IMG/VR virus record: IMGVR_UViG_3300030385_001001
Coordinates: 1-27,803 of that record
DNA: 27,803 nucleotides
Strand: one strand, 5' to 3'
Source of the DNA: a virus
The position numbers were made by a program, and so were the translations under genes. Below the pieces are notes generated by a model. That model had not been told where the DNA came from. It worked only from the letters and a program-made list of their open reading frames with translations, and did not search any database. Position 1 is the stretch's first letter. Each line of letters begins with the position of its first letter. Shown one piece after another: positions 217 to 15,832 of the stretch.

Positions 217-236
217 ATAACTAAAACAAAACAATT

Positions 237-446: not shown

Positions 447-449
447 ACT

Positions 450-1305: not shown

Positions 1306-1309
1306 GATT

Positions 1310-1414
1310 ATGGCGGAAAAACGCAAGGTGCTCCCAGTTAAAAACGACCATTGGAAGTATAAAATTAAAGACATAGATAAATGCATTAAATTCTACAAAC
1401 CCCAACCCAAATAA
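1310..1414 (+). CDS. Micro-ORF, 34 aa, basic
   Basis: A 34-codon frame fills the gap between two clear genes: it starts 4 bp after the stop at 1305 and its TAA shares one base with the next ATG (TAATG at 1412-1416). The product is basic and aromatic (MAEKRKVLPVKNDHWKYKIK, then DIDKCIKFYKPQPK). The filling of the gap and the coupled stop/start suggest it is translated. No function can be inferred; it may serve only to keep ribosomes moving to the next gene. Confidence 0.5.
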   Translation: MAEKRKVLPVKNDHWKYKIKDIDKCIKFYKPQPK

Positions 1415-1740: not shown

Positions 1741-2003
1741 GAAAAGGCACGGTAAAAGAGCTTGTAATCAAAAGGAGTGATATTATTACATTTGAAGGTA
1801 AAAAGGGCGACTATTATGCGGGGGAGTGGTTTATTTCATTCATGTACAAGTATAAAGGCAATGAGTTCGGGAGTAAGCTTTACAGCATGTTTCACGCAGT
1901 GGATAGTAAGGCGTTATACAATAGTTACCTGAACAGCTTTATTAAACACCTTGGGATTCAAGACGAATTCAAGGGGGTGAATTTATTGCTAATTAATGAG
2001 TGA
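1737..2003 (+). CDS. Hypothetical phage protein, 88 aa
   Basis: I choose the ATG at 1737, which overlaps the previous TGA (ATGA), over the in-frame ATG at 1710 that would overlap by 31 bp. The 88-residue product begins MRKGTVKELVIKRSDIITF and continues with β-rich, aromatic segments (YYAGEWFISFMYKYKG), suggesting a small β-barrel or sandwich, followed by a C-terminal helix. It overlaps the start of the large terminase by 8 bp. Function unknown; an accessory packaging role would be inference from position only. Confidence 0.6.
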   Translation: MRKGTVKELVIKRSDIITFEGKKGDYYAGEWFISFMYKYKGNEFGSKLYSMFHAVDSKALYNSYLNSFIKHLGIQDEFKGVNLLLINE

Positions 2004-3462: not shown

Positions 3463-3527
3463 TGTATATTCGTAACAGGCATTCTGTTAAAAATCAACCT
3501 AACAGTAACGCGGATGCATACCATTAG
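3462..3527 (+). CDS. Possible micro-ORF, 21 aa, after TerL
   Basis: A 21-codon frame starts at an ATG sharing one base with the TerL stop (TAATG) and ends at TAG. The product (MYIRNRHSVKNQPNSNADAY plus one residue) is hydrophilic and unrecognised. The stop/start overlap is the same arrangement seen at clear gene junctions here, but the region also holds a small hairpin (TAACAG 3473-3478 with CTGTTA 3484-3489) and is followed by a terminator, so it may be untranslated 3' sequence. Confidence 0.25.
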   Translation: MYIRNRHSVKNQPNSNADAYH

Positions 3528-3548
3528 AACTGCACGTGTTCATTATTT

Positions 3549-3580
3549 AACCCAGTATTAACGTGCTGGGTTTTTTATTT
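3549..3580 (+). terminator. Rho-independent terminator after the packaging genes
   Basis: The inverted repeat AACCCAGTA (3549-3557) and TGCTGGGTT (3564-3572) pairs over 9 bp with one T-G wobble around a 6-base loop. The 3' arm runs into TTTTTTATTT. This is the textbook form of an intrinsic terminator and closes the transcript that carries the terminase. Confidence 0.85.
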
Positions 3581-3608
3581 GGTTAAGTCGAAATAATGAT
3601 TACATTTA
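3578..3608 (+). promoter_or_regulatory. Candidate Bacteroidota promoter driving the leader A transcript
   Basis: TTTG at 3578-3581 is followed after 19 bp by TACATTTA at 3601-3608. The Bacteroidota primary sigma factor reads TTTG near -33 and TAnnTTTG near -7 with about this spacing; the -7 box here has one mismatch in the last base. It lies right behind the terminator, so it would restart transcription with its start at about 3611-3615, putting the following hairpin close to the very 5' end of the RNA. Confidence 0.5.
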
Positions 3609-3610
3609 CA

Positions 3611-3696
3611 CCAGAGGGTGCGACCTTTAAAAATATTATTGCTTGCTTGATGGAGTCGCACCTCCTGACAGTGAGCACTTTTAATTTATAGATATT
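3611..3696 (+). ncRNA. Structured 5' leader, copy A (homologous to 13671-13755)
   Basis: An 8-bp stem GGTGCGAC (3617-3624) with GTCGCACC (3655-3662) encloses a 30-nt loop containing AATATTATTG. A tail with GTGAGCACTTTTAATTTA leads to an ATG at 3697. A second copy 10 kb downstream has the same architecture, loop motif and tail. The stem differs at two adjacent positions and both changes are compensated on the other strand, while the loop differs by a 1-nt indel that would break any reading frame. That points to a conserved RNA structure, not coding. It could be a regulatory leader, a processing or stability hairpin, or a ligand- or protein-binding element; I know no named family that matches. 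Confidence 0.65.
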
Positions 3697-3729
3697 ATGG
3701 AAGCGGTTTGCTTGATAACATTAAACTAA
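3697..3729 (+). CDS. Possible leader peptide, 10 aa (MEAVCLITLN)
   Basis: The ATG sits at exactly the position, relative to leader A, that the LRR gene start has relative to leader B. Here it opens only ten codons before TAA, ending 5 bp before the next ATG at 3735. It may be a short upstream ORF that couples translation to the next gene, or the remnant of a cassette gene that was lost or replaced. Confidence 0.3.
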   Translation: MEAVCLITLN

Positions 3730-3734
3730 AAACA

Positions 3735-3974
3735 ATGAACGGGCAGTATATAATAAAACAGCAAGCCAACCTATTACAACGCAAGGAAACCGAGATTAAA
3801 AGCCTTGAATTACGACTGGTTGGTAAGTGTGAGGAGTTGCGATTTAACACTAAATTAATGGGCAGACTAGGTGGTCAAATAGGTGGTCAAATAGGTGGTC
3901 AGATAGGTGGTCAAATCGAGGAAGGCGTGATAGCTGAGACTATTTTCCTTATTTATTACATTTACACGCATTAA
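3735..3974 (+). CDS. Coiled-coil-like protein with GGQI tandem repeats, 79 aa
   Basis: I choose the ATG at 3735, preceded by an A-rich tract (aaactaaaaaca), over a TTG at 3708 in the same frame. The 79-residue product begins with a helical, charged segment (about 1-40) that looks like a coiled coil, with QQANLLQRKETEIKSLELRL inside it. Next comes an exact four-fold GGQI repeat (residues 46-61), then an acidic and hydrophobic tail ending in IFLIYYIYTH. A coiled coil followed by a glycine-rich repeat could be a small fibrous or spacer protein; this is inference. No family is recognised. It is the first full gene after leader A. Confidence 0.5.
   Translation: MNGQYIIKQQANLLQRKETEIKSLELRLVGKCEELRFNTKLMGRLGGQIGGQIGGQIGGQIEEGVIAETIFLIYYIYTH
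3870..3917 (+). repeat. 12-bp tandem repeat, four copies
   Basis: Four consecutive units of GGTGGTCAAATA (3870-3881, 3882-3893, 3894-3905, 3906-3917), the third with one A-to-G change and the fourth ending in C. The unit is a multiple of three and stays in frame, coding GGQI four times. Such in-frame minisatellites change copy number by slippage without breaking the gene. Confidence 0.95.
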
Positions 3975-3984
3975 AACGGAACGG

Positions 3985-4182
3985 ATGAAAAACAATAAGC
4001 TTAAAGTTATTTCCGATGGAACTGCAATCGGAACGAAAGTAATAGACAGGAACGGCATTGCAATTGATGGTTGCGAGTCGGTAGTAATAGAAATAAACGC
4101 TATTACGAACAGATCAACATGCACGCTGGTTGTTGGAGGTGTTGAGATTGAATACGAAGCGATAACGAAGCCTATTAACTAA
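3985..4182 (+). CDS. Hypothetical β-rich small protein, 65 aa
   Basis: A 65-residue ORF whose stop overlaps the next ATG (TAATG at 4180-4184). The sequence alternates short hydrophobic and polar residues: LKVISDGTAIGTKVID, ESVVIEINA and TCTLVVGGVEIEYEA. This suggests an all-β fold such as a small sandwich or barrel; the final segment resembles a β-hairpin 'tctLvvggVeie'. No signal peptide is visible. Not recognised beyond that; its place behind the terminase and before virion genes is a usual site for small accessory or cargo genes. Confidence 0.6.
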   Translation: MKNNKLKVISDGTAIGTKVIDRNGIAIDGCESVVIEINAITNRSTCTLVVGGVEIEYEAITKPIN

Positions 4183-4256
4183 TGAAAGGAATTAAACCAA
4201 TACTAGCCTTGTTCGATAAACTAGATGCGTATTATTTAGAAATTAAAGATAAGTAA
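4182..4256 (+). CDS. Micro-ORF, 24 aa
   Basis: Twenty-four codons bounded by TAATG overlaps on both sides (4180-4184 and 4254-4258). The product is one likely helix, MKGIKPILALFDKLDAYYLE followed by IKDK. The double coupling makes translation plausible; function is unknown. Confidence 0.45.
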   Translation: MKGIKPILALFDKLDAYYLEIKDK

Positions 4257-4354
4257 TGGAGCACCTAGAAAACATCGCGTTTGTATTATTCGCCCTAATC
4301 TGCTTAACTGAGTGGGGTGACGTAAAAGAGTATTTTAAAAATAGATGGCTATGA
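4256..4354 (+). CDS. Single-pass membrane micro-protein, 32 aa
   Basis: Thirty-two codons starting in a TAATG overlap and ending in TGA at 4352-4354, inside the next gene's start region. After MEHLEN comes a hydrophobic run IAFVLFALICL, long enough for a short membrane helix, then a charged tail (TEWGDVKEYFKNRWL). Small membrane proteins in phage accessory blocks can act in lysis control or superinfection exclusion, but there is no sequence evidence for either here. Confidence 0.45.
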   Translation: MEHLENIAFVLFALICLTEWGDVKEYFKNRWL

Positions 4355-4596
4355 ATAGGAATTTAACATATTTTAATAAAACGGAATTGACTGATAGTAC
4401 TACGCAATATGTGTTACGCGTATTCGGTGTTACCTTATGGGCGTCGTTATCTGATGATAAACAAGGCTGGTTTAGAATACTGGGTAGGGGTTTAATGTGG
4501 AAACATGAAGATAAAGGGCTTCGTTTTAGCGAAAGGTACGGATATACTAAATTTGTTAAGATAGGTAAATGGATTATAGAGTACTTACCAAAGTAA
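4345..4596 (+). CDS. Conserved-looking phage hypothetical protein, 83 aa
   Basis: The frame has two candidate starts: ATG at 4345 and ATG at 4351, the latter overlapping the previous TGA as ATGA and so perhaps the real one (81 residues). The C-terminal half has the pattern GWFRILGRGLMWKHEDKG, LRFSERYGYTKF and KWIIEYLP. I recognise this W-R-G-x-W-K followed by 'FSERyGY' as a recurring small phage protein, of unknown function, often near phage structural genes. β-rich, soluble. It ends the block opened by leader A; a strong promoter follows immediately. Confidence 0.65.
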   Translation: MAMNRNLTYFNKTELTDSTTQYVLRVFGVTLWASLSDDKQGWFRILGRGLMWKHEDKGLRFSERYGYTKFVKIGKWIIEYLPK

Positions 4597-4626
4597 TTGA
4601 AGTTTAAATAAAAAAGTGTAATTTTG
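4597..4626 (+). promoter_or_regulatory. Bacteroidota-type promoter for the virion operon
   Basis: TTG at 4597-4599 is followed after 19 bp by TAATTTTG at 4619-4626, an exact match to the TAnnTTTG -7 box. Transcription would start near 4630, leaving a short A-rich leader (aaacaacaaagctat) before the ATG at 4646. The -33 box overlaps the stop of the previous gene. Confidence 0.7.
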
Positions 4627-4645
4627 TTTAAAACAACAAAGCTAT

Positions 4646-5083
4646 ATGTCTAACTTAACAGTAACCACTTCAATAGTACTCACACATGAAGGGACGGTTT
4701 ACGATTTCGAGAAGTCACACTCACTAACAGGCATTACAAGCGTCTCGGACAACACAATTGAGGACATAGACACCGCCACGGTATCAGTCTTAGCCACTAT
4801 AGCAGCCCAAAACGGAGGCGCGATATTCAAAGACATTAATTTTATTTACATTGAGAATAAAGACACTGTAAACTTTTGCAACATTGGATACAAGGATACG
4901 GGCGGTAGTACTGTCTATTTCCCTTTAGACGCTGGTAGAAGTATTTACTTCTGGAATAATCAACTGGTAGTTTCTGAAACAGGCGCGGTATTAGGTGCGC
5001 TTGTAGATTGGGACACAGTAACAGCCCAATTCGATACGTTGGCTGGTGACCTGAAAGTCTTTATATGTCAAGTTACCCCGTAA
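4646..5083 (+). CDS. Putative virion structural protein, 145 aa
   Basis: First gene after a strong promoter. The 145 residues are β-rich and free of long helices or a signal peptide: LTVTTSIVLTHEGTVYDFEK, then a TGITSVSDNTIEDI region, FIYIENKDTVNFCNIGYKD, and a C-terminal LGALVDWDTVTAQFDTL. The composition (threonine, valine, aspartate, single cysteines) fits a minor virion or adaptor protein. Pieces such as 'f.yieN.dtvN...iGy.d' are like those in small structural proteins of Bacteroidota phages, but I cannot name a family. It is 3 bp upstream of the DUF1320 gene, so it may act at the head-tail junction. Confidence 0.55.
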   Translation: MSNLTVTTSIVLTHEGTVYDFEKSHSLTGITSVSDNTIEDIDTATVSVLATIAAQNGGAIFKDINFIYIENKDTVNFCNIGYKDTGGSTVYFPLDAGRSIYFWNNQLVVSETGAVLGALVDWDTVTAQFDTLAGDLKVFICQVTP

Positions 5084-5086
5084 TAT

Positions 5087-6118
5087 ATGGCTCATTTACG
5101 TAAACGCGATTATCTTACATCCATAAGAGAAAAAGACCTTGATACTATTCTGGCTCAGACAGGGCATTCACCCGACATGGTGAGGCAAGAGCAGGAGGAA
5201 AACACCATTGCAGAAATTAGCGCGATGATTTGCCACAGGTACGACGTTGAAAAAATCTTTACCGATATACTACCCTGGAACGCACTAACACAATTTAACA
5301 TAAGCGAGACGGTTGAATATTCCCAGCCCGCTTATAGTGATAGTCAAACATATATTTTAAATGCCTTAGTAAGCTTTAAAACCACCGCAAACGGGATTAT
5401 TTCAGACGACATCTACATTAACACAACAGCGGTTACCTCACCAGAAGTATTTAACGCTTCTAAGTGGACAAAACAAGATACTAACTTTTCATTATACACC
5501 GTTAAGGAGCCTGTAATTACATCCACACCAGCTACACAATTCTCTTACACTACAAACCTATTCACAGGTAATCATGATACCATACTAGGCTGGGATACGA
5601 CAAGCGACATCTTTTTAAGGCGAATCGGCAACGAAGTACGGATTTACTACAGTTCAGCAGACCGAACGAGCAATGTTAATATTATTGGGACTGTAGATGT
5701 AACCGACCAAGTAAAAAACTTTCCTTCCAATATACCAATTGGTGGAGGTGACGACCGAGAGAACTCACTAGCAGGTACCTTGTTTATAATTGGATTCATG
5801 CCAAACGGTCAAGATTGGAGTGTTGTAGCTTCGGACGCTTACCAGAAAGAAGACAAGCGAGACAGGTTAATAATCGGCATTATGATTGACTTGGTTTTGT
5901 TCAGATTGTACGGGCTCGGATCGCAACGAATGATACCTGATTTTATCGGTGAGAATCATGATAACGCAATGAAGAAACTGGAGGCTATTAAAAAGGGTAC
6001 TATTTCGCCCAAGTTGCCGCTATTTCATGACGAATCAACAGGCAGTCAAATAGCTTTTGGAAGCGCACCGCAAATATCACATACACCATTTAGAACTACG
6101 AGACAATGGAGTTTTTGA
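5087..6118 (+). CDS. DUF1320 (Mu gp36-like) head-tail protein with a large internal insert
   Basis: The two ends look like one DUF1320 protein. Residues 1-60 carry the N-terminal pattern (RKRDYLTSI, then NTIAEISAMICHRYDVEKIF). Residues about 255-315 carry the C-terminal pattern (DKRDRLIIGIMIDLVLFRLY, then AMKKLEAIKKGTISPKLP). DUF1320 proteins are about 140 residues and are thought to connect head and tail in Mu-like phages; this one has 343. The extra 190 residues include a short aromatic module at 81-131 (QTYILNALVSF, then VFNASKWTKQ), which resembles chitin-binding type CBM5/12 modules, and a β-rich domain after it. The stop lies inside the next small gene's start. The insertion is probably surface exposed; its binding function is inference. 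Confidence 0.7.
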   Translation: MAHLRKRDYLTSIREKDLDTILAQTGHSPDMVRQEQEENTIAEISAMICHRYDVEKIFTDILPWNALTQFNISETVEYSQPAYSDSQTYILNALVSFKTTANGIISDDIYINTTAVTSPEVFNASKWTKQDTNFSLYTVKEPVITSTPATQFSYTTNLFTGNHDTILGWDTTSDIFLRRIGNEVRIYYSSADRTSNVNIIGTVDVTDQVKNFPSNIPIGGGDDRENSLAGTLFIIGFMPNGQDWSVVASDAYQKEDKRDRLIIGIMIDLVLFRLYGLGSQRMIPDFIGENHDNAMKKLEAIKKGTISPKLPLFHDESTGSQIAFGSAPQISHTPFRTTRQWSF

Positions 6119-6270
6119 AGAAAGTAAAAGAAGCTAAAATTGGCTATCATATATCAGAAGGGATTATACGTGTTTGTTCGTTCCCTATTTGGTTTCCTAT
6201 TCTTTGCTACAAATACGGATTGGTTTATTCTGACATTCTAAAAGATAAGTTTATAGATAAAAATGATTAA
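6106..6270 (+). CDS. Small hydrophobic protein, 54 aa
   Basis: A 54-residue frame overlaps the DUF1320 gene by 13 bp and the portal gene by 8 bp. It begins with a basic amphipathic part (MEFLKKVKEAKIGYHI) and then has a membrane-like stretch rich in aromatics and prolines (IRVCSFPIWFPILCYKYGLV), ending in charged residues. One membrane span is plausible. It fills the gap between two firm genes exactly, which supports it. Function unknown. Confidence 0.55.
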   Translation: MEFLKKVKEAKIGYHISEGIIRVCSFPIWFPILCYKYGLVYSDILKDKFIDKND

Positions 6271-7519
6271 GGACGTTAATAATAGATTCACGCAAAAGAT
6301 TGAGGCCAGCCACAGAAAGCAGCCTAAAAACTCGCGAATATCCGTACAATTAGACTCGGTAAACAGACAAAGAAGAGTTGACGAGATAGGTAACTGGTCA
6401 CGCGCATTGAACTTAGCCGAAAGAAGAGACGACCCCGACCGAACCGACCTAATACGTATCTTTAAAAACATGCGTATTGATGGCCATATAAACGGGATTA
6501 TCACAACGTTAATCAATAAGGTACTAGCAAAGGATTTTTTAATAGTTGACTCAGAAGGTAATGAAGACGAGAAAGCAAAGTTATTCTTTGAAAGTAAATG
6601 GTTCCCAAGGTACTTAACATGGAGTATTGAGGCGCGTTTTTATGGGTTTAGCCTTATTCAGTTAAACGATATAGTTGATGGCCAGTTTAAAGATATGGAA
6701 CTTATTGACAGAGAGTTCGTAATACCAGATTTACATATCGTCAAACAGTCCGATACAAGATTTTCGGGTAGTGATGTTAGTTGGGATTATACAGCCCCTA
6801 ACTTTAGAGACTGGTACATATTTATAGGTGAAGACAAAGATTTAGGCTTATTTAATTCTGTAGCACCTCAGGCTATTGCAAAGAAGCACATGTTTTCCGC
6901 TTTATGGCAGTTTATTGAGTTGTTCGGTATGCCTTTTAGAGTTGGTAAAACAGCTATAGACGACCCAGCGCAAAAGAAAAACATGATTGACATGCTAGGC
7001 GGTATGGGTCGAGCTGGCTGGGGTGTATTTGGTGAAGATGATATAATAGAATACGTACAAGCAATTGACGCTGATTCCGCCGCGTTTATCGACTCCATAC
7101 AATTAGCAAATCAAGAAATCAGCAAGAACTTCACGGGTGTTTCGGGTCTGTTTGATGATAAGGCGTTTGTAGGCAGTGCAGAAGCTCAAGAACGTGTTGT
7201 AAAGGAGCTTATTATGTCATTCACTCGAACTATCATGTTTGATATTGACGACGGGCTCATCCCTAGAATGCAAAAACAAGGCGCGTTTCCGGAAGATCGG
7301 TTTTTCAGGTGGAAAGCAGACGACTTATTGAGCACCATGGAGAAAGGCGACTTAATCTCTAGGTTATTGCCAATGATTACCATGACGCCTGATGAGATAG
7401 GAAAAGAATTAGGGCTTAAATTTGAAGCGCCTGTTGCGGACCCTGATTCACCAGCAGGTAAAAAAGTAGCAGCAAGGGTTTTGGAGATTTACAATAAAAC
7501 TAAAAAGGAAGGTAAATAA
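6263..7519 (+). CDS. Portal protein, DUF935 (Mu gp29-like)
   Basis: A 418-residue protein with the layout of the DUF935 portal family: an N-terminal charged arm, then DRTDLIRIFKNMRIDGHING, the region AKLFFESKWFPRYLTWSIEA with 'yGFSLIQLN' after it, and the signature LFGMPFRVGK in the middle. Next come GGMGRAGWGVFGEDDIIEYV and the C-terminal helical region TRTIMFDIDDGLIPRMQKQG. Twelve copies form the ring at the capsid vertex through which TerL drives DNA and on which the neck assembles. Length is slightly short of Mu gp29 (about 510). The stop codon shares a base with the next ATG (TAATG at 7517-7521). Confidence 0.85.
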   Translation: MIKDVNNRFTQKIEASHRKQPKNSRISVQLDSVNRQRRVDEIGNWSRALNLAERRDDPDRTDLIRIFKNMRIDGHINGIITTLINKVLAKDFLIVDSEGNEDEKAKLFFESKWFPRYLTWSIEARFYGFSLIQLNDIVDGQFKDMELIDREFVIPDLHIVKQSDTRFSGSDVSWDYTAPNFRDWYIFIGEDKDLGLFNSVAPQAIAKKHMFSALWQFIELFGMPFRVGKTAIDDPAQKKNMIDMLGGMGRAGWGVFGEDDIIEYVQAIDADSAAFIDSIQLANQEISKNFTGVSGLFDDKAFVGSAEAQERVVKELIMSFTRTIMFDIDDGLIPRMQKQGAFPEDRFFRWKADDLLSTMEKGDLISRLLPMITMTPDEIGKELGLKFEAPVADPDSPAGKKVAARVLEIYNKTKKEGK

Positions 7520-8583
7520 TGGCTTCGATAGACAAAATACAAGATAAGATAATAACCGAAAAGGAAACGGCGGCGGAACTTAACGGACTGTTACCTTCTC
7601 CTGACTCTTCGCAAAACTTTTTAGAAGATATTCAATCACCGTCCCTTGTTGCTACGTGGCGTACATTTATTAGGGTTATTGCAACTTGTATTAAGTTTCA
7701 CGAAGACTTATTCGACGCGTTCAAAGCATTTGTAGAAGCGAGAGCACTAGCCATCATACCGCAAACAGATAGAAGACTGGCAATACTTGCTAAAAGGTTT
7801 CAGTTTGGAGATGAATTAGTATTTGATAGCGAGGGGCAATTTAGCTACGCAGACACAACCAGTACAGACGCAATTACAAAACAAATCATTACGCAAGCGA
7901 GTGTAAAAAGCGCTAATAGGGTTATTACTTACAAAGTAGCAAAAGCTTCTGGTGGCGGATTGACAGAGCTAACAGGAGACGAAAAAACAGCCTTTACAAC
8001 TTATGTAGACGATACTATTACAGCAGGAAGCAAGGTAACTATCATAAGCGACTTGGCCGACTTTATAAAGATAGCCTACACTATACAGTACGATCCTTTA
8101 GTAATAAAAGCCGATGGTAGCTTAATTGAAGACGGCAGTTTCCCGGTTCAAGAAGCTATTGACGCATACATAAAGGGACTTCCGTTTAATGGATTGCTTA
8201 GTGTAAAAGAGTTAACCGACGCGATCCAAGGTGCAAGGGGTGTAGTTAATCCAGTTGCCGACGTGGTGCAAGCCAGGGACGAAACAGCGGGATACACCGA
8301 TATATTGAACATTAACACTGAGACTTACCCGCCTTTCTCAGGCCACTTCGCCACGGTAGACGAAACAGGAAGCGAGGCCGTACCAGTTTACGGAGATATT
8401 CCAATACTAGCCAATAAGATAAGTGGATTATCAGACCACGACGCCACACTACTTTATAGTTTAGGTTCATTTGTTATCGAGGGTGGTGTGGTGTTTAAAT
8501 CTAATGTAGCTATTACGGGCGGCGAAGCATTCGACTCTACTAAATGGGATACGGTATCTAACTTAACGTTTATTAGCAAGTAA
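7519..8583 (+). CDS. Baseplate J-like wedge protein with a C-terminal carbohydrate-binding-like module
   Basis: Residues 1-90 are helical, and 115-260 follow the baseplate J (T4 gp6-like) pattern: ASVKSANRVITYKVAK, then an AFTTYVDDTITAGSKV segment, SDLADFIKIAYTIQYDPLVI, QEAIDAYIKGLPFNGLLSVK and the conserved-style turn DAIQGARGVVNP. J-like proteins form the wedges that ring the hub of a contractile tail. At 308-348 a small aromatic module is attached (LLYSLGSFVI, VVFKSNVAI, AFDSTKWDTVSN), similar to modules in three other proteins here. The gene lies between portal and Mu F-like genes, not with the spike and gp25-like wedge, which is unusual. The stop overlaps the next ATG. Confidence 0.65.
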   Translation: MASIDKIQDKIITEKETAAELNGLLPSPDSSQNFLEDIQSPSLVATWRTFIRVIATCIKFHEDLFDAFKAFVEARALAIIPQTDRRLAILAKRFQFGDELVFDSEGQFSYADTTSTDAITKQIITQASVKSANRVITYKVAKASGGGLTELTGDEKTAFTTYVDDTITAGSKVTIISDLADFIKIAYTIQYDPLVIKADGSLIEDGSFPVQEAIDAYIKGLPFNGLLSVKELTDAIQGARGVVNPVADVVQARDETAGYTDILNINTETYPPFSGHFATVDETGSEAVPVYGDIPILANKISGLSDHDATLLYSLGSFVIEGGVVFKSNVAITGGEAFDSTKWDTVSNLTFISK

Positions 8584-9275
8584 TGTTAAAGTATAAAATC
8601 AACTTTAAAGATTTATCCGCTGCTCTTTCGCCGTGGTTTTTCCGAGCGCCTATTTACTTGCGTTACATGTTTGCGCTTGTTAAACCGTTGGATGAACTAA
8701 ACGATAACAGTATACCAATCCAATTCTTTGACCAGAAAAACCCATCCCTATACCAATTCACAATATTTATCACTCGTTTTTTACAGGTTAACGCGTCTAG
8801 GTTGGTATTGCAGAAGTACTTAAATGAGCTATTCGACCCTACAAACGAGGGTATTCTAATAGTCAATAATGCTGTAATTGACGTTACATACAGGTTCAAT
8901 AATTCAGAACAGCACGATGAAGATTTTGATTATAATGCATGGGATATCACAGTGGATTACGCCGCTTCTGGTGAGTTTATTTTAGCACCCGATGGTAATG
9001 TGTACGAATCAAAAACAACACCTAATTTGGGTAATGAACCCCCAAACGGAAGTTTTTGGGACTTAATAAGCACAGCAAAAGAGTATTCATTTAACGAGGC
9101 AGACGAATATACGGCGGACTACACTATTAAAATACCTTTGATAATCACAACGGCCTCAAATGTTGATTATAGCAATGAAAAGTTTATGGCAATAGTAAAT
9201 CAATTTAATGCATCAGGAAGAACGTATCAAGGCATCGTGCTTGAAACTTCTGCATTCTTATTTCAAAATACATAG
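8583..9275 (+). CDS. Putative baseplate/tail protein (position of Mu gp48 or gpI) with an inserted module
   Basis: This 230-residue protein directly follows the J-like gene (TAATG overlap), where Mu-like phages place gp48 and P2 places gpI, so a wedge-associated or fibre-connecting role is likely. Residues 1-100 contain an amphipathic region (PWFFRAPIYLRYMFALVKPL) and LQKYLNELFD followed by a β strand (GILIVNNAVIDVTYRF). At 120-162 there is a module WDITVDYAASGEFIL, NVYESKTTPNLGNEPP, SFWDLI, which has the spacing of chitin-binding type modules (W at each end, central Y). The C-terminal 60 residues return to β-rich sequence (YTIKIPLIITTASNV). Family membership is not certain by eye. Confidence 0.55.
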   Translation: MLKYKINFKDLSAALSPWFFRAPIYLRYMFALVKPLDELNDNSIPIQFFDQKNPSLYQFTIFITRFLQVNASRLVLQKYLNELFDPTNEGILIVNNAVIDVTYRFNNSEQHDEDFDYNAWDITVDYAASGEFILAPDGNVYESKTTPNLGNEPPNGSFWDLISTAKEYSFNEADEYTADYTIKIPLIITTASNVDYSNEKFMAIVNQFNASGRTYQGIVLETSAFLFQNT

Positions 9276-9277
9276 TA

Positions 9278-10201
9278 ATGGATAAATTTAAATCAAAGAA
9301 TATTTTAGGCGGCATACCGAGAGTTTTAGACGACCTAAGACACGCCACAGGTCAAGATGGTGGACATGGAATATACCAATCGCTTAACAATATATTAGGC
9401 TCATTTGGTACTGATTTTGTAGTTCAAGGGTGTGAGGTTACGGGCTCTGTCCCTTCTCAATCATTATCCGAGGGTTGGATATATTTAGGAGGTGAGCTTT
9501 TAAAGGTAGACGCTGTTTCTGGAATCTTAGATACTAGTGTCGATTTTACATTTACCAAGTCGGTTACTTTTAAAGCTAGCGGTTTAAAGGATTTACAATC
9601 AGGCGGTACAGCTAATACTTACGAGCAAAATAGAGGTGTATTGTCTGGCGGTGCTGGTGCTCTTAATGTACTAACAGGTGATAGATTTAAAGATCAGTTT
9701 GACGAGTGGAAAGTATTCGATATAACAGGCACCAACGCAAACCTAGTTAGTAATAGCTTAGGTGATGGTACAGGTACAGACATAGCGCTACATTCGGCGG
9801 CTGTTTCGGGACATTTAAGATACAAGATAGTAGGCAAAACGGTTACTTGGAGTATATCGATAGTGGGTTTCGAAATCAAGTCGCAAGATGCAGCAGGCAC
9901 GCCCATTTTTAGCGTAGTAATTAAAAATCTACCATGGACGGCAAAAGTAGATCAATACAATTCTGTATTTATGCTATGTACTTCTGATACGGGGCCAGTG
10001 ACCAATACAACACGAGCAAAGCAGGTGACAAGTTCGGACAGAATTATTATAAATCAACTCGTTTTCGATAATAGCGATGTAGCCTTAAACAGGGCTTACG
10101 AATGGCTTAATACTACAAGTATGAATGAGAGCAACACCTCTGCCACGAATATAATAACCCAATGGACACTAACAGGCAACGGGTGTACTGAAATTGAATG
10201 A
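9278..10201 (+). CDS. Tail-fibre-like or baseplate appendage protein, 307 aa
   Basis: The N-terminal 120 residues (GGIPRVLDDLRHATGQDGGH, then VQGCEVTG, and SEGWIYLGGELLKVDAVSG) match the pattern of fibre N-termini in Bacteroidota phages: a helix, a 'l.GCev' segment and a 'GwvylnGellkv' hairpin that attaches to the baseplate. The middle has small-residue-rich linkers (GVLSGGAGALNVL), and the C-terminal 180 residues are β-rich (HLRYKIVGKTVTWSISIVGF, then IITQWTLTGNGCTEIE). That C-terminal domain is likely the tip or receptor-contact part. It follows the J-like and gp48-position genes, which fits attachment to the baseplate. The start is 2 bp behind the previous stop, and the end overlaps the Mu F-like gene by 4 bp (ATGA). 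Confidence 0.6.
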   Translation: MDKFKSKNILGGIPRVLDDLRHATGQDGGHGIYQSLNNILGSFGTDFVVQGCEVTGSVPSQSLSEGWIYLGGELLKVDAVSGILDTSVDFTFTKSVTFKASGLKDLQSGGTANTYEQNRGVLSGGAGALNVLTGDRFKDQFDEWKVFDITGTNANLVSNSLGDGTGTDIALHSAAVSGHLRYKIVGKTVTWSISIVGFEIKSQDAAGTPIFSVVIKNLPWTAKVDQYNSVFMLCTSDTGPVTNTTRAKQVTSSDRIIINQLVFDNSDVALNRAYEWLNTTSMNESNTSATNIITQWTLTGNGCTEIE

Positions 10202-10995
10202 TAGGGTTTGACGACATACAGACTATCTTAAGGGGAATATGGAGGGGGAACGTAACTGTCAACACATTGCCAAAACAGGTATATGACGAGAACCGAAACA
10301 GGCTCAATAATGGAGTTGAAAAAGGATTCGGCTCTAAACTAAACGACTTTAACCAAGGCACACAGGAATTCCGAACTATGCAAAGTCTACACGATAACGT
10401 AACTTTCTTTTCCGCTGCTAAGACATTCCAACAGGTCAATGATATGCAGTTTATGCGCTTTGATGAAAATGGTTTTTTACGCTCGTTCAATGACTTCAAA
10501 AAGGAGGCTTTGCCTATATTCAATCAATACAATGTAGACTGGCTAGAAACCGAATGGAATACAAGCGTATCACAATCACAAAGCGCTGAACAATGGATAG
10601 GCATACAAGCCAATAAAAAGGATTTACCGTTACTTCAATACAGAACAGCCAACGACGCGCGGGTAAGAGATGCACATAAAGCTTGGGACGGAATTATACG
10701 GCCTGTTGGCGACCCTTTTTGGGATACACGGCTACCTAATAACGGCTATAACTGTAGATGTGGAGTTATACAGCTTCCAGGTGGAGACTCAACAAACCTT
10801 AATCAACATTTGATCGATGTTAATAAACAAAGAAAGATTGAAGGTATTAAGCCCTTGTCTTCATTGAAAAACGAAGAGAGACTATTTTCTGATAACGTAG
10901 GTAAATCTGAACAGGTATTTAAAGAGACAGGCAACGCTAAACATCCATATTTTGACGCTCCGCAAAGGCGAAAAGATAATAATTTCGGGTTATGA
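10198..10995 (+). CDS. Phage head morphogenesis protein, Mu F-like
   Basis: Residues 147-192 carry the Mu F (PF04233-type) signature: QYRTANDARVRDAHKAWDG, then GDPFWDTRLP, NNGYNCRCGV, with the paired cysteines C186 and C188 and the conserved R155 and H160. Proteins of this family are minor head components needed early in assembly and are normally encoded next to the portal. Length (265) is in the family range. Here the gene is separated from the portal by the three baseplate/fibre genes. It starts in an ATGA overlap and its end overlaps the next start by 4 bp. Confidence 0.85.
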   Translation: MIGFDDIQTILRGIWRGNVTVNTLPKQVYDENRNRLNNGVEKGFGSKLNDFNQGTQEFRTMQSLHDNVTFFSAAKTFQQVNDMQFMRFDENGFLRSFNDFKKEALPIFNQYNVDWLETEWNTSVSQSQSAEQWIGIQANKKDLPLLQYRTANDARVRDAHKAWDGIIRPVGDPFWDTRLPNNGYNCRCGVIQLPGGDSTNLNQHLIDVNKQRKIEGIKPLSSLKNEERLFSDNVGKSEQVFKETGNAKHPYFDAPQRRKDNNFGL

Positions 10996-11420
10996 GCATT
11001 AAGAAAACAGGTAGCTTCGGAATAGGTAAAGCAGTCAGGGCTTATAAATTAGCTAAGAGTAGCTTGCCAGTAGTTATTGCGAATAATAGTAAGAATCATT
11101 TCTCTCAAGGATTTAGGCAAAGCGGAGGGCAAACAGACGCATCAAGAGGAGGTTGGCAACGAAGAAAGAAAGACCCGAAAGGAGCGCAGAGAGGTATATT
11201 GATTGGTCGTAAAGGTGGCAAGATGTGGAAAGCGTTGCAGGTAATTAGTAGTACTTTCTCTAAAATAGAGGTTGGTATTTTGGGCATAGCTTACGCGGAA
11301 CGACACAAGGAAGGCTTGGACGGTATGCCACAAAGGGAATTCCTAGGCAAATCGGCGCAATTAGATTCGAGCAACAGGAAAATAATACTAAAAGAACTTA
11401 ACGATATATTCAAAAGGTAA
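10992..11420 (+). CDS. Virion morphogenesis protein, Mu G-like (tail completion type)
   Basis: This 142-residue protein follows the F-like gene as gpG does in Mu. It shows the family outline: an N-terminal helix, GGWQRRKKDPKG (the 'W.pR' step), GILIGRKGGKMWKALQV (the 'L..sG.L..s' step), then KIEVGILGIAYAERHKEG with the conserved 'vG....YA..HqeG', and MPQREFLGKS ('P.ReFLG'). These proteins join completed tails to heads or act in late morphogenesis. It overlaps the next gene by one base (TAATG). Strongly basic. Confidence 0.75.
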   Translation: MSIKKTGSFGIGKAVRAYKLAKSSLPVVIANNSKNHFSQGFRQSGGQTDASRGGWQRRKKDPKGAQRGILIGRKGGKMWKALQVISSTFSKIEVGILGIAYAERHKEGLDGMPQREFLGKSAQLDSSNRKIILKELNDIFKR

Positions 11421-11950
11421 TGTCTGAACTAAAATTACACAACGACATAGTAACAAGCCTAAAGGCTATCGTAGATGAAAACGGTGATAGGGTTTTTCAT
11501 ACTGTTGGTTTGTGGAACGATCAAATATTAGAAGCTAACGAAGGGAAAGAATCACCATTCAACTATCCAGCTTGTTTTATTCAATTTGCAGAAATACCCT
11601 GGACTCCACGTAACGACGCGGGAGGCTCAAGAACTAATATAACAGAAGAACAGCAAGGAGGGTTATCTGTTATAAGGATACATATCTGCCACTCTCATTT
11701 AGAGAATGTAGAAGATAGTTTTCCATTAATTCACCCTAAGAATCTACAAGTTTACTACGCTATACAAGGCATGCCAAATACTGCCTTGTATAGCAGACTT
11801 AACAGGATTTCGGGCGCAATACCAGAAACAAACCACGACAGAATACAAGACTGGCAAATGGAATTCAGTGTTACAATGGTACAGACAGGACAGATATTAA
11901 ACAAAACGACTATCGAAGCGGGTACATTAAGCACAACAATAGTAGAATAA
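11420..11950 (+). CDS. Putative tail terminator / neck protein, 176 aa
   Basis: A 176-residue protein with an N-terminal helix (LKLHNDIVTSLKAIVDENGD), then PFNYPACFIQFAEIPW, a long disordered-looking loop (NDAGGSRTNITEEQQGG), LSVIRIHICHSHLE and a C-terminal QDWQMEFSVTMVQTG. The order helix, exposed loop and paired β strands ('g.ls.irIhI', 'dWqmeFsvtm') is what is seen in tail terminators, which cap the tube and dock to the neck, and the position right after a G-like gene agrees. I cannot confirm the family. TAATG overlap with both neighbours. Confidence 0.5.
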   Translation: MSELKLHNDIVTSLKAIVDENGDRVFHTVGLWNDQILEANEGKESPFNYPACFIQFAEIPWTPRNDAGGSRTNITEEQQGGLSVIRIHICHSHLENVEDSFPLIHPKNLQVYYAIQGMPNTALYSRLNRISGAIPETNHDRIQDWQMEFSVTMVQTGQILNKTTIEAGTLSTTIVE

Positions 11951-13287
11951 TGGCTAAAAAAGTAAGACCTAATCTGATAATCGACAACCTAGTATACAGG
12001 ACTGGATTGAGCGACCCATCCTGCACGGTTGGTGTAATAATAAAGATTACTTCGCCTACATCAATAGGGGGGTCTAATGGGAAAGCGGCGGCTAATGTTT
12101 CAAAGGTTCAGGGTAATCTTACTTATTTATGGTCTACGGGCGCAACAACTCCAACAATATTAAACCTATCAGAAGGACTGGTGTCTGTAACCGTAACAGA
12201 TGACCATTCGAAGCTATGCACAGCATTCGCAGAAGCTTTCGTACCAGACCCTGTTGCCCCACCTGCTCCAAGTTGCAGTATAAATATCGATAGTATAATG
12301 ACTACCCCGCCGTCTACATTGGGAGGTAGTGACGGTACAGCAACGGCGTTTGTTTCTGGCAATACAGGAATTATAAATTATGGGTGGTCTAATGGTGAAA
12401 CAACCAACCCGGCCACAGGTCAATCGGCGGGCTCTATATCTCTAGCAGTGTCCGACTCAGGGGTAGGGGTTACGTGTTTAGATTCTCTAGATACCACTGT
12501 AGGCGCGGGAGACGCTGGCGCTTCTGCATTTATTGCAGCGGCTGGAATCACGGGATCCAATCAAATAAACGCATTAACCCAATTAGTAGCTGATCTAAAA
12601 GGCACAGGGGTAACAACTAACAATACGGATGTATGGTGTAGGCTACATGCATTTTACCCATACTGCCCTATTGATGATACTACAGCCACGAGGGACGCAT
12701 ATAAATTCAATCTAATTAACTCCTTAGATACTGACGCAGCATTTAGGATTACATGGTTTAATAATCCGACAGTTACAATAGGAGGTGTTACGGGCAATGC
12801 CACAAATCAATATGGTAACACGCATTTCAGACCGACAACACACGCTAATTCTATAGATGATTTTGGAATGTCTGTGCATAACTCAACAACGGTAGGCACG
12901 AGTAGTAATATCGATATAGGGTGTTCGGATGGGGGAAACTTTATTCAAATCAGCCTTGCAAATACAACGTTTACTGGTATCATAGGATCGATAACATCCA
13001 ACACTCAAGGAACTGTAAGCACAGCTGCTGTAAGAACACTATCAAGATCGGCCTCAAACGACCTAAAACTATACGCTAACGGTGTATTAAACGCTTCTGA
13101 TATAACACTTTCGGGTTCGTTAGTGCCTTACGATATAACGGTATTAGGCCGAAACACTACGGGCTCTCCTAGCTTCTTATCTGCTAGAACTTACACTATG
13201 CACGCAATACACGAAGGATTAACCGCTAATGAAGCGCAAGACCTATACGATTCAGTTGTTAAATATAATACAGCCCTAGGAAGATGA
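11950..13287 (+). CDS. Fibre-like adhesin with two SprB-type repeats and a lectin-like region
   Basis: Residues 25-90 and 108-176 are two diverged copies of one repeat: 'GGSNGKA...G.LTYLWSTGATTPTI.NLSEGLVSVTVTD...C' and 'GGSDGTA...G.INYGWSNGETTNPATGQSAGSISLAVSD...C'. Each has a C, GGs/dG, WSxG, aG..s..V.D and C. This is the pattern of SprB repeats, found in the gliding adhesin SprB and other large surface proteins of flavobacteria. From about 190 on the protein resembles a module common in Bacteroidota phage fibres (FIAAAGITGSNQINALTQLV, AFYPYCPID, DTDAAFRITWF), ending in a concanavalin/LamG-like β region (to 445). It lacks a signal peptide, so it is a virion protein, probably a receptor-binding one. 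Ends with a 4-bp overlap (ATGA). Confidence 0.65.
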   Translation: MAKKVRPNLIIDNLVYRTGLSDPSCTVGVIIKITSPTSIGGSNGKAAANVSKVQGNLTYLWSTGATTPTILNLSEGLVSVTVTDDHSKLCTAFAEAFVPDPVAPPAPSCSINIDSIMTTPPSTLGGSDGTATAFVSGNTGIINYGWSNGETTNPATGQSAGSISLAVSDSGVGVTCLDSLDTTVGAGDAGASAFIAAAGITGSNQINALTQLVADLKGTGVTTNNTDVWCRLHAFYPYCPIDDTTATRDAYKFNLINSLDTDAAFRITWFNNPTVTIGGVTGNATNQYGNTHFRPTTHANSIDDFGMSVHNSTTVGTSSNIDIGCSDGGNFIQISLANTTFTGIIGSITSNTQGTVSTAAVRTLSRSASNDLKLYANGVLNASDITLSGSLVPYDITVLGRNTTGSPSFLSARTYTMHAIHEGLTANEAQDLYDSVVKYNTALGR

Positions 13288-13487
13288 AAGCAGTAGTAAT
13301 TAATAAATCCGATTCCGATAAATTCCCTCTTCTGAATAAGGAAAAAGATAGTCATTGGATGTACCTCGATAATTTAGTTAGTGGCGACTTATGGCTATCA
13401 CTTGATTCCGAAACAGACATTAAGAAAAGTGGAATTAGTTATGCAATAAAGGATGTAGAGATAATTAAGGTAAACGATTTAACATAA
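13284..13487 (+). CDS. Hypothetical protein, 67 aa
   Basis: A 67-residue ORF that starts inside the stop of the fibre gene (ATGA, 13284-13287). It reads MKAVVINKSDSDKFPLLNKE, then SHWMYLDNLVSGDLWLSLDS and ends SYAIKDVEIIKVNDLT. The alternation suggests a small β fold. Being coupled to the fibre gene, it could be an accessory or assembly helper of the fibre, but this is only inference from order. The stop is followed by an A-rich tract and the next small gene. Confidence 0.55.
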   Translation: MKAVVINKSDSDKFPLLNKEKDSHWMYLDNLVSGDLWLSLDSETDIKKSGISYAIKDVEIIKVNDLT

Positions 13488-13493
13488 AAACAA

Positions 13494-13652
13494 TTGAACA
13501 AAGAAAAGGATATAAAGAACGATAGAGCCAAGTATGTACAGAAGACTGTTAATGAGTCGAAGAAAACGGGTAGGGCGGTTAACAAGTTGGCTAAACAGTT
13601 GTTTTTATCTAAGCGCACAATTTATGATGATTTAAGTCGTGATGTTGAATAA
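13494..13652 (+). CDS. Small helix-turn-helix DNA-binding protein, TTG start
   Basis: A 52-residue frame from a TTG at 13494, preceded by an A-rich start context (ataaaaacaa), to TAA at 13652; there is no ATG in this frame. The N-terminus is basic and helical (NKEKDIKNDRAKYVQKTV). Residues 28-47 read RAVNKLAKQLFLSKRTIYDD, a good helix-turn-helix of the kind 'vnkLAkqlflSkrTIyddL' found in small regulators and in terminase small subunits. It is the only obvious DNA-binding candidate complete in this window and lies directly upstream of leader B and the LRR gene, so it might regulate them. A TTG start lowers confidence. Confidence 0.5.
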   Translation: MNKEKDIKNDRAKYVQKTVNESKKTGRAVNKLAKQLFLSKRTIYDDLSRDVE

Positions 13653-13670
13653 TTAGTTTATATTAGCAAC

Positions 13671-13755
13671 CGAAAGGGTGCATCCTTAACAATATTATTG
13701 ACTGCTAGATCGAGATGCACCTCGTGAAGGTGGTCATTTTTAATTTAATAACATT
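13671..13755 (+). ncRNA. Structured 5' leader, copy B (homologous to 3611-3696)
   Basis: The stem GGTGCATC (13677-13684) and GATGCACC (13714-13721) pairs perfectly over 8 bp around a 29-nt loop with AATATTATTG. The tail GGTGGTCATTTTTAATTTA matches the tail of copy A and leads directly to the LRR start at 13756. Relative to copy A, two neighbouring base pairs are changed on both sides and still pair, and the loop is one base shorter. Upstream sequence is also related (tattagcaacc against tttacacc). A weak -7-like TATATTAG lies at 13659-13666 but I see no good -33 box, so the promoter for this copy is uncertain. Confidence 0.65.
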
Positions 13756-14541
13756 ATGAAAGAAAGTACATTAACGTTCGATGAAGGATTTACAGTAGGA
13801 GCCGCTATAGGTTATATTTTCGGCATGATGTGCTGGGTAATACTAATGTCTATACCCGCACAAGCACAGGTATACATTCCTGACTTAATGTTTAAAAGGG
13901 AATTAATCAACAATTTAGAACTAAACACAAACGGAGATATATCAATATCATACGAAGAGGCAGAAGCATACACGGGAGAGATTAACTTGCAAGGTAAGGG
14001 GGTATTTGTATTAACGGGACTAGAAGCGTTTACCTCATTAACTGGGTTCAACTGCGTAAATAACTACTTCATTACAAAGGTAGACGTAAGCCAAAACACC
14101 GAATTAACAAACCTGCGAGTTGATAATAACCGATTAATCGAGCTAGATATTACTAATAACCCACTTTTAGAAGTTTTGGCTTTAGCTGGCAATAACATTG
14201 ACGAATTAGACGCCTCGAACAATCCATTAATCACTTTCCTTTCGTGCTACAATAACGATATGAAGTATTTGGACATTAGAAACTGTAATATCAATATGGT
14301 ATTCGGCGCTACATTAAACCCTAATCTATGCATCGCCGTAGATGATACTAGCTACGCAAATACTACTTGGGATTTCATAGACGCCACAGCAATGTTTACC
14401 ACTGATTGTTCAGTAGGCATACAAGAACACACCATTAAACCTCAAGACATTACAACCATTTACGACATACAAGGCCGTAAAGTCAATCAAACAACATCAG
14501 GTTTTTACATCATTGGTCGTACGGTAAAAGGGTACAAATAA
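13756..14541 (+). CDS. Secreted leucine-rich-repeat protein with T9SS-like C-terminus (probable accessory gene)
   Basis: This 261-residue protein begins with a hydrophobic segment at about 13-33 and an AQAQ site near 37, a plausible signal peptide with a long N-region. Residues 39-100 (VYIPDLMFKRELI, NTNGDISISYEEAEAYTG, LTGLEAFTSLTGFNC) and LRRs at about 100-185 (ITKVDVSQNTELTNLRVDNN, RLIELDITNNPLLEV, NIDELDASNNPLITFLSCYN) match the secreted LRR proteins of flavobacteria, as does NPNLCIAVDDTSYANTTW (188-205). The last 30 residues (TTIYDIQGRKVNQTTSGFYI, IGRTVKGYK) look like the second half of a T9SS sorting domain. It would be exported by the host to its surface. A phage cargo (moron) gene acting on the host cell, such as receptor masking or colonisation, is inferred. 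Confidence 0.75.
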   Translation: MKESTLTFDEGFTVGAAIGYIFGMMCWVILMSIPAQAQVYIPDLMFKRELINNLELNTNGDISISYEEAEAYTGEINLQGKGVFVLTGLEAFTSLTGFNCVNNYFITKVDVSQNTELTNLRVDNNRLIELDITNNPLLEVLALAGNNIDELDASNNPLITFLSCYNNDMKYLDIRNCNINMVFGATLNPNLCIAVDDTSYANTTWDFIDATAMFTTDCSVGIQEHTIKPQDITTIYDIQGRKVNQTTSGFYIIGRTVKGYK

Positions 14542-14632
14542 CCCCCCTTTACATTATCGTATTTTTATATATGATTTTGTGCAACTACCGTTTTAGCCCC
14601 TTCTAATCTTACCGCTTCGCCTGTACTATAAT

Positions 14633-14640
14633 TAGTTTTG
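14633..14640 (+). promoter_or_regulatory. -7 box just before the protease/scaffold start; possible leaderless transcript
   Basis: TAGTTTTG matches TAnnTTTG exactly and ends only 4 bases before the ATG at 14645, so transcription would begin at or next to the start codon. No convincing TTTG lies 19 bp upstream. The gap 14542-14644 otherwise holds a C-run after the LRR stop, an AT-rich stretch and no ORF or clear terminator. Confidence 0.5.
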
Positions 14641-14644
14641 TAGT

Positions 14645-15832
14645 ATGGATTTCAAAGATTATTCACCAAAGCATATACAAAACCTCACGAAAGAAGAGGC
14701 GCACATCAATCTATTTAGTGAGATAGGCGGCGACATGGGAATTAACGGACAATCCTTTGCTGACGAAATACAAATGTTAAACGCGTTCGGCGTTGAAACT
14801 ATAAACATTCACATTAATTCTGGCGGCGGTTCTGTAATAGATGGGTTCTCTATCTTTTCAGCAATCAACAATAGCAAAGCACACACAAACATATTTATAG
14901 AAGGTATAGCCGCTTCAATGGCTGGTGTAATCGCAATGGCTGGCGACAAAATACACATGACCGACTTTAGCAAGATAATGATTCATAACCCGCACAACAA
15001 CGGGCACAACGAAGAAGACGAAAACGTAAAGAATGCTTTAGGGGCAATGCGTGATTCTTTGTTAATCATAATGAATAATCGATCCGACATAACAGAGGCT
15101 AAGATGTCTAAAATAATGGATCAAGAGACATGGATTAGTCCAAAAGATGCCCTTGAGATGGGTATTATCGATGAGATCGTAAAAACAAAGAAAGTAAAAA
15201 CACAGACAAAGGCTGCTATTTCTGGTATCCTAAACTCTTATAGTAATAACAGTAGTAATAATAACACAATAAAAAACGATATGAAAAACATCGCAAAGCA
15301 TTTGAATCTAAATGAAGATGCAACAGAGGCTGCAATTTTAGACGCAATCAAAACAGTTGAATCTAATCTTGAGAAGTCTAGCGAAGACTTAGTAAAAGCT
15401 AAAACAGATTTGAAAGCATCTACCGAAGAAGTAACAGCACTTAAATCAGAAGTTGCAGACTTTAAATCAGAAGCCGACAAGCTTAATGATAAGTTAGTAG
15501 AAGAAACCATTGATAAAGGTATCGAAGACGGCAAGTTTGACAAGGACGCTAAAGAAGATTTAGTTGCTGAGTTTAAAGGCAGTCTTTCAAGTCTTCAAAT
15601 GATTGTTGGAAAGGTAAAAGCTAAAGCGCCAAATATTGCGAATCAATTGCAAAGATCAGCCGACGGTACAACCGACAGTAAATTACCAGAAGCACTTGCA
15701 AAAATGAATTGGAGAGAAGCGGATAAGGCGGGCAAATTAGATAAGATTAAAAGCATTGACTCAGGTGCATACTTTGCTCTATACGAGACTCAGTATAGTA
15801 AACCTCACCCTGACTTTGTAGAAGCAGTTTAA
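14645..15832 (+). CDS. ClpP-like prohead protease fused to a scaffold-like domain
   Basis: Residues 15-185 are a ClpP-type (S14) protease: INIHINSGGGSVIDGFSIF, FIEGIAASMAGVIAMAGDKI with the nucleophile S91, IMIHNPH with H114, and ETWISPKDALEMGIIDEI. In phages this protease matures the prohead by cutting scaffold and capsid proteins. A polar linker (SYSNNSSNNNTIKND, 198-212) joins it to a charged coiled-coil region (about 215-330) with KSSEDLVKAKTDLKASTEEV and DFKSEADKLNDKLVEE, typical of phage scaffolds. The C-terminus (NWREADKAGKLDKI, YSKPHPDFVEAV) may bind capsid protein. The protein probably self-cleaves. An internal ATG at 15281 may make free scaffold. Confidence 0.85.
   Translation: MDFKDYSPKHIQNLTKEEAHINLFSEIGGDMGINGQSFADEIQMLNAFGVETINIHINSGGGSVIDGFSIFSAINNSKAHTNIFIEGIAASMAGVIAMAGDKIHMTDFSKIMIHNPHNNGHNEEDENVKNALGAMRDSLLIIMNNRSDITEAKMSKIMDQETWISPKDALEMGIIDEIVKTKKVKTQTKAAISGILNSYSNNSSNNNTIKNDMKNIAKHLNLNEDATEAAILDAIKTVESNLEKSSEDLVKAKTDLKASTEEVTALKSEVADFKSEADKLNDKLVEETIDKGIEDGKFDKDAKEDLVAEFKGSLSSLQMIVGKVKAKAPNIANQLQRSADGTTDSKLPEALAKMNWREADKAGKLDKIKSIDSGAYFALYETQYSKPHPDFVEAV
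15281..15832 (+). CDS. Possible nested scaffold protein from an internal start, 183 aa
   Basis: In the same frame as the protease, an ATG at codon 213 follows an A-rich stretch (caataaaaaacgat) like the contexts of the other starts here. It falls exactly at the junction between the asparagine/serine linker and the coiled-coil part, giving MKNIAKHLNLNEDATEAAIL and onward. In lambda (C/Nu3) and Mu (I/Z), a protease gene contains an in-frame internal start for the scaffold; the same design is likely but unproven. Confidence 0.45.
   Translation: MKNIAKHLNLNEDATEAAILDAIKTVESNLEKSSEDLVKAKTDLKASTEEVTALKSEVADFKSEADKLNDKLVEETIDKGIEDGKFDKDAKEDLVAEFKGSLSSLQMIVGKVKAKAPNIANQLQRSADGTTDSKLPEALAKMNWREADKAGKLDKIKSIDSGAYFALYETQYSKPHPDFVEAV

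What the first reader, a model, noticed from the sequence alone, without database searches (positions are those of the whole stretch)
3611..13758. Two homologous 5' leader RNAs with compensatory base changes, each before accessory genes
Copy A (3611-3696) and copy B (13671-13755) share an 8-bp stem, a 29/30-nt loop with AATATTATTG, a matching tail (cacttttaattta against catttttaattta) and an ATG at the end. The stems differ at two neighbouring base pairs (GGTGCGAC/GTCGCACC and GGTGCATC/GATGCACC) with both sides changed, which is what selection for RNA structure produces. A 1-nt indel in the loop excludes a shared coding function. Copy A also sits between a terminator and a promoter. Copy A precedes a block of unknown small genes and copy B precedes a secreted LRR protein, so the element may be a portable leader for independently expressed cargo genes. 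I know no named RNA family for it.
Basis: partly seen in the sequence, partly recalled or inferred. Interest (0 to 1): 0.85.

Follow-up and report, generated by a model that had tools for sequence, protein, structure and literature searches.

The report
Kissing-hairpin RNA leader of phage cargo
A Bacteroidota phage carries, directly upstream of interchangeable accessory genes, an RNA leader of about 80 bases predicted to fold into two hairpins whose loops pair with each other; the loops differ from copy to copy but always match within a copy, so the fold is under selection and no known RNA family describes it.

Summary
In detail: two 77%-identical copies, each ending at an ATG. I found two more copies in two related phage contigs (L003, L022), four in all. 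A short hairpin (AAGG[6-7 nt]CCTT) and a long hairpin (8 bp, tandem G.A in three copies, 4 bp, 6-7-nt loop) carry loops that differ between copies yet are complementary within each: GTGCGA/TCGCAC, GTGCAT/ATGCAC, GCACA/TGTGC, GTGTAG/CTACAC. Loops are the least conserved positions but always pair; long-hairpin pairs also covary. Three copies have a TTTG-N19/20-TAnnTTTG promoter 5-7 nt before hairpin 1, so the RNA should start at the fold. The long hairpin ends 17-20 nt before ATG, leaving the ribosome-landing zone open. Homology ends at the ATG; the genes behind it are unrelated, and copy B plus its LRR gene is absent from relative L022 at that site. No Rfam match; no copies found in 50,697 GenBank phages or about 790 sampled genomes. 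Best reading: a cis-acting 5' structural leader (works like a T7 gene-10 leader) that protects the mRNA and sets expression of swappable cargo. Structure is well supported; function is inferred.

The parts
3549..3572 (+). Intrinsic terminator closing the terminase unit, directly upstream of copy A
   Evidence: 10-bp stem followed by TTTTTT; equivalent terminator 5330-5359 in L022
3578..3608 (+). Bacteroidota-type promoter of copy A: TTTG (3578-3581), 19-bp spacer, TACATTTA (3601-3608)
   Evidence: 9 of 10 consensus positions, 5 nt before hairpin 1; only 6 such matches on the + strand of the window; C and D have the same score and position; consensus from PMC7366714
3613..3628 (+). Copy A hairpin 1: AGAGG[GTGCGA]CCTTT, kissing loop 3618-3623
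   Evidence: sequence; energy
3640..3677 (+). Copy A hairpin 2: lower stem 3640-3647/3670-3677, tandem G.A (TGAT/TGAC), upper stem 3652-3655/3662-3665, kissing loop TCGCAC 3656-3661
   Evidence: RNAalifold consensus; pair counts
3678..3699 (+). Copy A AU-rich ribosome-landing tail and ATG (ATG at 3697 opens only a 10-codon ORF, MEAVCLITLN)
3700..4594 (+). Variable cargo slot 1 (small unknown genes), unrelated to the genes at the same place in L003 and L022
   Evidence: DNA homology stops at 3699 and resumes at 4594; no Pfam or PHROG hit
13674..13687 (+). Copy B hairpin 1: AAGG[GTGCAT]CCTT, kissing loop 13678-13683
13699..13736 (+). Copy B hairpin 2: lower stem 13699-13706/13729-13736, tandem G.A (AGAT/TGAA), upper stem CGAG/CTCG 13711-13714/13721-13724, kissing loop ATGCAC 13715-13720
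   Evidence: MFE fold
13737..13755 (+). Copy B AU-rich tail, 19 nt, before ATG 13756
13756..14541 (+). Cargo 2: 261-aa leucine-rich-repeat protein with an N-terminal hydrophobic segment
   Evidence: Pfam PF23952 LRR_EndoS E=2.2e-6; absent at this site in L022

Best explanation
It is the structured 5' end of an mRNA: promoter, then two tandem hairpins whose loops kiss, then about 19 nt of unstructured AU-rich RNA, then the start codon of a swappable cargo gene. Most likely it works in cis, independent of ligand, as a 5'-terminal structural leader: the compact fold caps the 5' end against 5'-end-dependent decay and keeps the start region clear of structure, so that any gene placed behind its ATG is expressed well and independently of its neighbours. 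In this it works like the T7 gene-10 leader (5' hairpin plus AU-rich stretch plus start codon). Shown here by comparison: homology of four copies, covarying helices, private loop-loop complementarity, near-fixed distance to ATG, end of homology at ATG, unrelated cargo. Inferred: transcription from the TTTG/TAnnTTTG promoter, the kissing contact in solution, and the effect on stability and translation.
For: Four copies. Each loop 1 pairs best with its own loop 2 (longest Watson-Crick run 6, 6, 5, 6; best of all 24 assignments); random second loops reached 5 bp in 0.2-0.9% of trials per copy and never in all four (0 of 200,000); loop letters are only 57% alike against 78% in the lower stem and 82% in the tail. 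Lower stem 31 of 32 cells paired with 2 double changes, falling to 31-59% when slid by 1-3 columns. RNAalifold alone predicts hairpin 2. A generic kissing-hairpin descriptor finds exactly the four copies plus one chance hit in the three phages, with about 0 in shuffles. Promoter 5-7 nt before hairpin 1 in A, C and D. Hairpin 2 ends 17-20 nt before ATG; -20 to +20 is generally unpaired in Flavobacterium johnsoniae mRNAs (PMC6847099). Unpaired positions are AU-rich without a conserved pocket, which argues for a structural role.
Against: No expression, probing or decay data. Copy B has no good -33 box. Copy A's ATG opens only a 10-codon ORF. Lower-stem G.U wobbles are conserved, which a pure stabiliser would not need. 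A U-rich run follows hairpin 2, so a terminator or attenuator is not excluded. Copy A alone folds preferentially as the extended 8-bp stem in a nested model.
Confidence: 0.45

Rival explanations
1. Attenuator or small-RNA gene: hairpin 2 followed by the U-rich run is an intrinsic terminator, so most transcripts end as an RNA of about 70 nt, and conditional read-through expresses the cargo.
For: Hairpin 2 is -13 to -19 kcal/mol and followed by 4-6 U within two bases; copy C has a 15-bp uninterrupted stem and U6.
Against: The U run is short (U4 in A and D) and merges with a conserved AATTTA tail at near-fixed distance to ATG; the kissing contact would not undo hairpin 2, so no antiterminator is visible; the phage's terminators have U6 and cleaner stems.
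Confidence: 0.2
2. Binding site of a phage or host RNA-binding protein that controls translation of the cargo (operator).
For: Conserved wobble-rich lower stem and tandem G.A in A, B and D; fold ends at the edge of the ribosome footprint.
Against: Loops, the usual contact points, vary freely; no candidate regulator is common to the three phages next to the element; cargo genes are unrelated, so no autoregulation.
Confidence: 0.17
3. Processive antitermination RNA like HK022 put or the LoaP leader hairpin, loaded onto RNA polymerase at the start of a long late transcript.
For: Two hairpins at the start of long units following a terminator, two copies in one genome.
Against: Only weak terminator-like sites downstream, no more than in shuffled DNA; copy B is missing in L022 although the same late genes follow.
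Confidence: 0.1
4. DNA-level element: inverted repeat bound by a dimeric protein, or a conserved boundary for recombination that swaps cargo.
For: Homology ends at the ATG, so the element does mark a module boundary.
Against: Half-sites differ between copies but match within a copy, unlike a shared protein site; second helix and hairpin geometry are also kept.
Confidence: 0.05

Closest known systems
T7 gene-10 leader (from knowledge)
   Same: 5'-terminal hairpin, AU-rich stretch, start codon; phage late gene; mRNA stability and strong translation
   Different: No Shine-Dalgarno here, two hairpins with kissing loops, no sequence relation
HK022 put RNAs (from knowledge) and the LoaP-dependent leader hairpin (PMC12691694)
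   Same: Hairpin structure near the start of a transcript; put has two copies in one phage
   Different: No convincing downstream terminators to override; loops form a kissing contact; no UNCG loop
Guanidine-II riboswitch (mini-ykkC; from knowledge)
   Same: Two small hairpins whose loops contact each other, in a leader
   Different: ACGR tetraloops with invariant letters there; here 6-7-nt loops of free sequence; no Rfam match
Phage morons (from knowledge)
   Same: Accessory gene with its own promoter inserted between late genes
   Different: Carries a conserved structured leader shared by unrelated cargo; no terminator seen after the LRR gene

Membership tests
Any Rfam 15 family | Covariance-model match at or near the gathering score | tested here: not met
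   Whole window: none at E<=5; each of the four copies alone: only chance hits far below gathering
H-type pseudoknot / single 8-bp stem | 8-bp P1 kept by covariation in all copies | tested here: inconclusive
   Full in A and B; flanking pairs lost in D (A.G, C.A) and bulged in C, loop core kept
Kissing-loop tandem hairpins (structural class) | Two stable hairpins with mutually complementary apical loops in every copy | tested here: met
   geometry not proven by experiment
Intrinsic terminator | G+C-rich stem plus U tract of about 7-8 | tested here: inconclusive
   U4-U6 then AA; stems with several G.U pairs
Guanidine-II riboswitch | Two hairpins with ACGR loops | tested here: not met
   Loops GTGCGA, GTGCAT, CGCACAA, AGTGTAG
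Processive antitermination RNA (put-like) | Read-through of downstream terminators | not testable with these tools
   Only weak terminator-like sites downstream
Moron | Gene and own promoter inserted between genes that adjoin in relatives | tested here: met
   L022 has 88 nt between the HTH gene and the protease gene; the window has about 1 kb with copy B and the LRR gene; promoter of B weak
Moron | Own terminator after the gene | tested here: not met
   No terminator-like site listed after 14541 in the scan of 1-14700

The most novel reading that the evidence does not exclude
A new class of phage cis-leader: a self-contained expression cassette (promoter, kissing-hairpin 5' cap, open ribosome-landing zone, ATG) into which unrelated accessory genes are swapped, where the kissing contact is the functional switch or 5' shield and copies in one genome carry different loop pairs that favour their own partner.
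Probability: 0.3. Interest if true: 0.75.

Novelty: new variant of a known kind. Interest (0 to 1): 0.52.

Why it matters
Bacteroidota largely do without Shine-Dalgarno sites, and little is known of how their phages secure expression of late and accessory genes. A compact leader that works in front of any gene would show how morons are made portable, and could be a ready-made expression part for this phylum. The loop pairs give a direct test by compensatory mutation.

Tried and rejected
Pattern scans of IMG/VR gave only L003 and L022 as true relatives; other hits (L002, L006-L021) lack the fold. Protein-guided scans with terminase and portal gave L003 and L022 as close relatives. Terminase in genome contigs: none; portal: two distant loci. 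Covariance model R1 on about 790 sampled genomes (phylum and class of two distant portal-bearing Bacteroidota genomes) and on Flavobacterium phages lotta8-2 and FPSV-S27: none. Distant prophages found by portal (L039-L041, L044, L045) do not carry the fold. Chance DNA hits in Enterococcus and Synechococcus phages were dismissed. A frame-keeping coding role is excluded by the 1-nt indels. Ribozyme and riboswitch readings were set aside: no conserved unpaired core. The sigma-70-like hit at 3605 was rejected because the count is no higher than in shuffles.

Full report
OBSERVATION. They form the longest direct repeat in the window, 77 nt at 77% identity, and the core pattern has two matches against none in 100 shuffles. 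Nested folding of single copies is only modestly better than shuffled sequence (z -0.9 to -1.6), so stability alone would not have made the case; comparison does.

RELATIVES. The window is a 27.8-kb virus record of a tailed phage with Mu-like portal and F proteins, a Clp-type prohead protease and a PBSX-type terminase. Its nearest named relatives by protein are Flavobacterium phages of the family Winoviridae. A Bacteroidota host is therefore inferred. Two closer relatives were found in IMG/VR: L003 (terminase 83%) and L022 (portal 72%). Each carries one copy at the place of copy A, behind the terminase gene: copy C at L003 1542-1627 and copy D at L022 5413-5495.

STRUCTURE. Folding C and D showed two tandem hairpins rather than one stem, and copy B folds the same way. 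Hairpin 1 is AAGG/CCTT with a 6-7-nt loop. Hairpin 2 has an 8-bp lower stem, a symmetric internal loop with tandem G.A in A, B and D (ordinary pairs in C), a 4-bp upper stem and a 6-7-nt loop. RNAalifold on the MAFFT alignment predicts hairpin 2 by itself, with three pairs that show compensatory change. The lower stem pairs in 31 of 32 cells, with two pairs changed on both sides; sliding the partner by 1-3 columns drops this to 31-59%. With only four sequences the tool's letter shuffle is weak evidence (33 of 500). A column-shuffle control never gave a helix of that quality anywhere in the alignment (0 of 600), and gave one like the loop helix in 0.3%.

KISSING LOOPS. Across copies the pairs are GTGCGA/TCGCAC, GTGCAT/ATGCAC, GCACA/TGTGC and GTGTAG/CTACAC. 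Loops are among the most variable parts (57% mean identity), but each pairs best with its own partner, the best of all 24 assignments; random second loops would reach 5 bp in 0.2-0.9% of cases per copy and in all four in 0 of 200,000 trials. The copies share ancestry, so this is not a strict probability; but the loops have changed and the match has been kept. The P1 alignment was made by hand with the structure in mind; the lower-stem alignment is gapless and was not. A descriptor with free sequence (two hairpins, complementary loops), written after seeing the fold, returns exactly the four copies and one chance hit in the three phages, against about 0 in shuffles.

CONTEXT. A and C lie after a strong terminator and D after its equivalent. 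A, C and D have TTTG-N19/20-TAnnTTTG-type promoters (9 of 10 positions), with the -7 box ending 5-7 nt before hairpin 1 (consensus quoted in PMC7366714). Transcripts should thus begin at the fold. Copy B has only a weak match. Hairpin 2 ends 17-20 nt before the ATG, and the tail is AU-rich and unpaired. In F. johnsoniae the region -20 to +20 is generally unpaired and Shine-Dalgarno sites are lacking (PMC6847099). Homology stops at the ATG: the 19 nt before it are 47-89% identical between copies, the 45 nt after it 20-40%. Behind the ATG are a 10-codon ORF followed by small unknown genes (A), an LRR protein (B), a 68-aa unknown protein (C) and a 241-aa unknown protein followed by an HU-like protein (D). 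In L022 the HTH-like gene and the protease gene are 88 nt apart, whereas the window has copy B and the LRR gene between them, so B plus cargo is an insertion in the window lineage or a loss in L022.

FUNCTION. What is conserved is geometry, not an unpaired core; this argues against a ligand-binding riboswitch or ribozyme. I favour a cis-acting 5' structural leader that protects the mRNA and offers an open landing zone to any cargo (0.45). Conserved G.U pairs and the U-rich run leave room for an attenuator (0.2) or a protein operator (0.17). A put-like antiterminator (0.1) is weakened by the lack of convincing downstream terminators and by L022 doing without copy B.

KNOWN OR NEW. No Rfam family matches. 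No copies were found in 50,697 GenBank phage records by DNA or in two draws of about 395 genomes each from the phylum and class of distantly related host genomes. The filters of those genome scans are strict, so this is weak evidence of absence. The element is a new, narrowly distributed structured leader: a new variant of phage 5' leaders, with an unusual kissing-hairpin design.

Noticed in passing
L022:2669-5185: The terminase large subunit of the relative L022 is interrupted after GGAVRGGK (Walker A) by an intein-like insertion of about 350 aa ending in VTHN before SFNG; the window's terminase has none.
   Followed up: partly
L022:5215-5288: tRNA-Met(CAT) gene between the terminase gene and the terminator in front of copy D; L003 has at about 1240-1345 a tRNA-like stretch with an acceptor-like inverted repeat and TTCGAAT loop that neither ARAGORN nor Rfam accepts.
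   Followed up: partly
window 14555-14644 and L022:16935-17020: A second conserved leader, in front of the prohead protease gene, ending in GTACTATAATTARTTTTGTAGTATG, with TACTA/TAGTA able to pair next to the start codon.
   Followed up: no
window 13756-14541: The LRR cargo protein ends in a motif (YDIQGRKVN...GFYIIGRTVKGYK) that resembles type IX secretion sorting domains, from memory; Pfam and NCBIfam do not list one. It might be displayed on the host surface.
   Followed up: partly
window 3868-3915: Tandem 12-bp repeat (ATAGGTGGTCAA) coding GGQI repeats at the end of a small cargo protein.
   Followed up: no
L022:7882-8505: A GIY-YIG-like homing endonuclease gene (read from the translation, IGVYQI..YIGSS) sits between two conserved head genes that adjoin in the window.
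   Followed up: no
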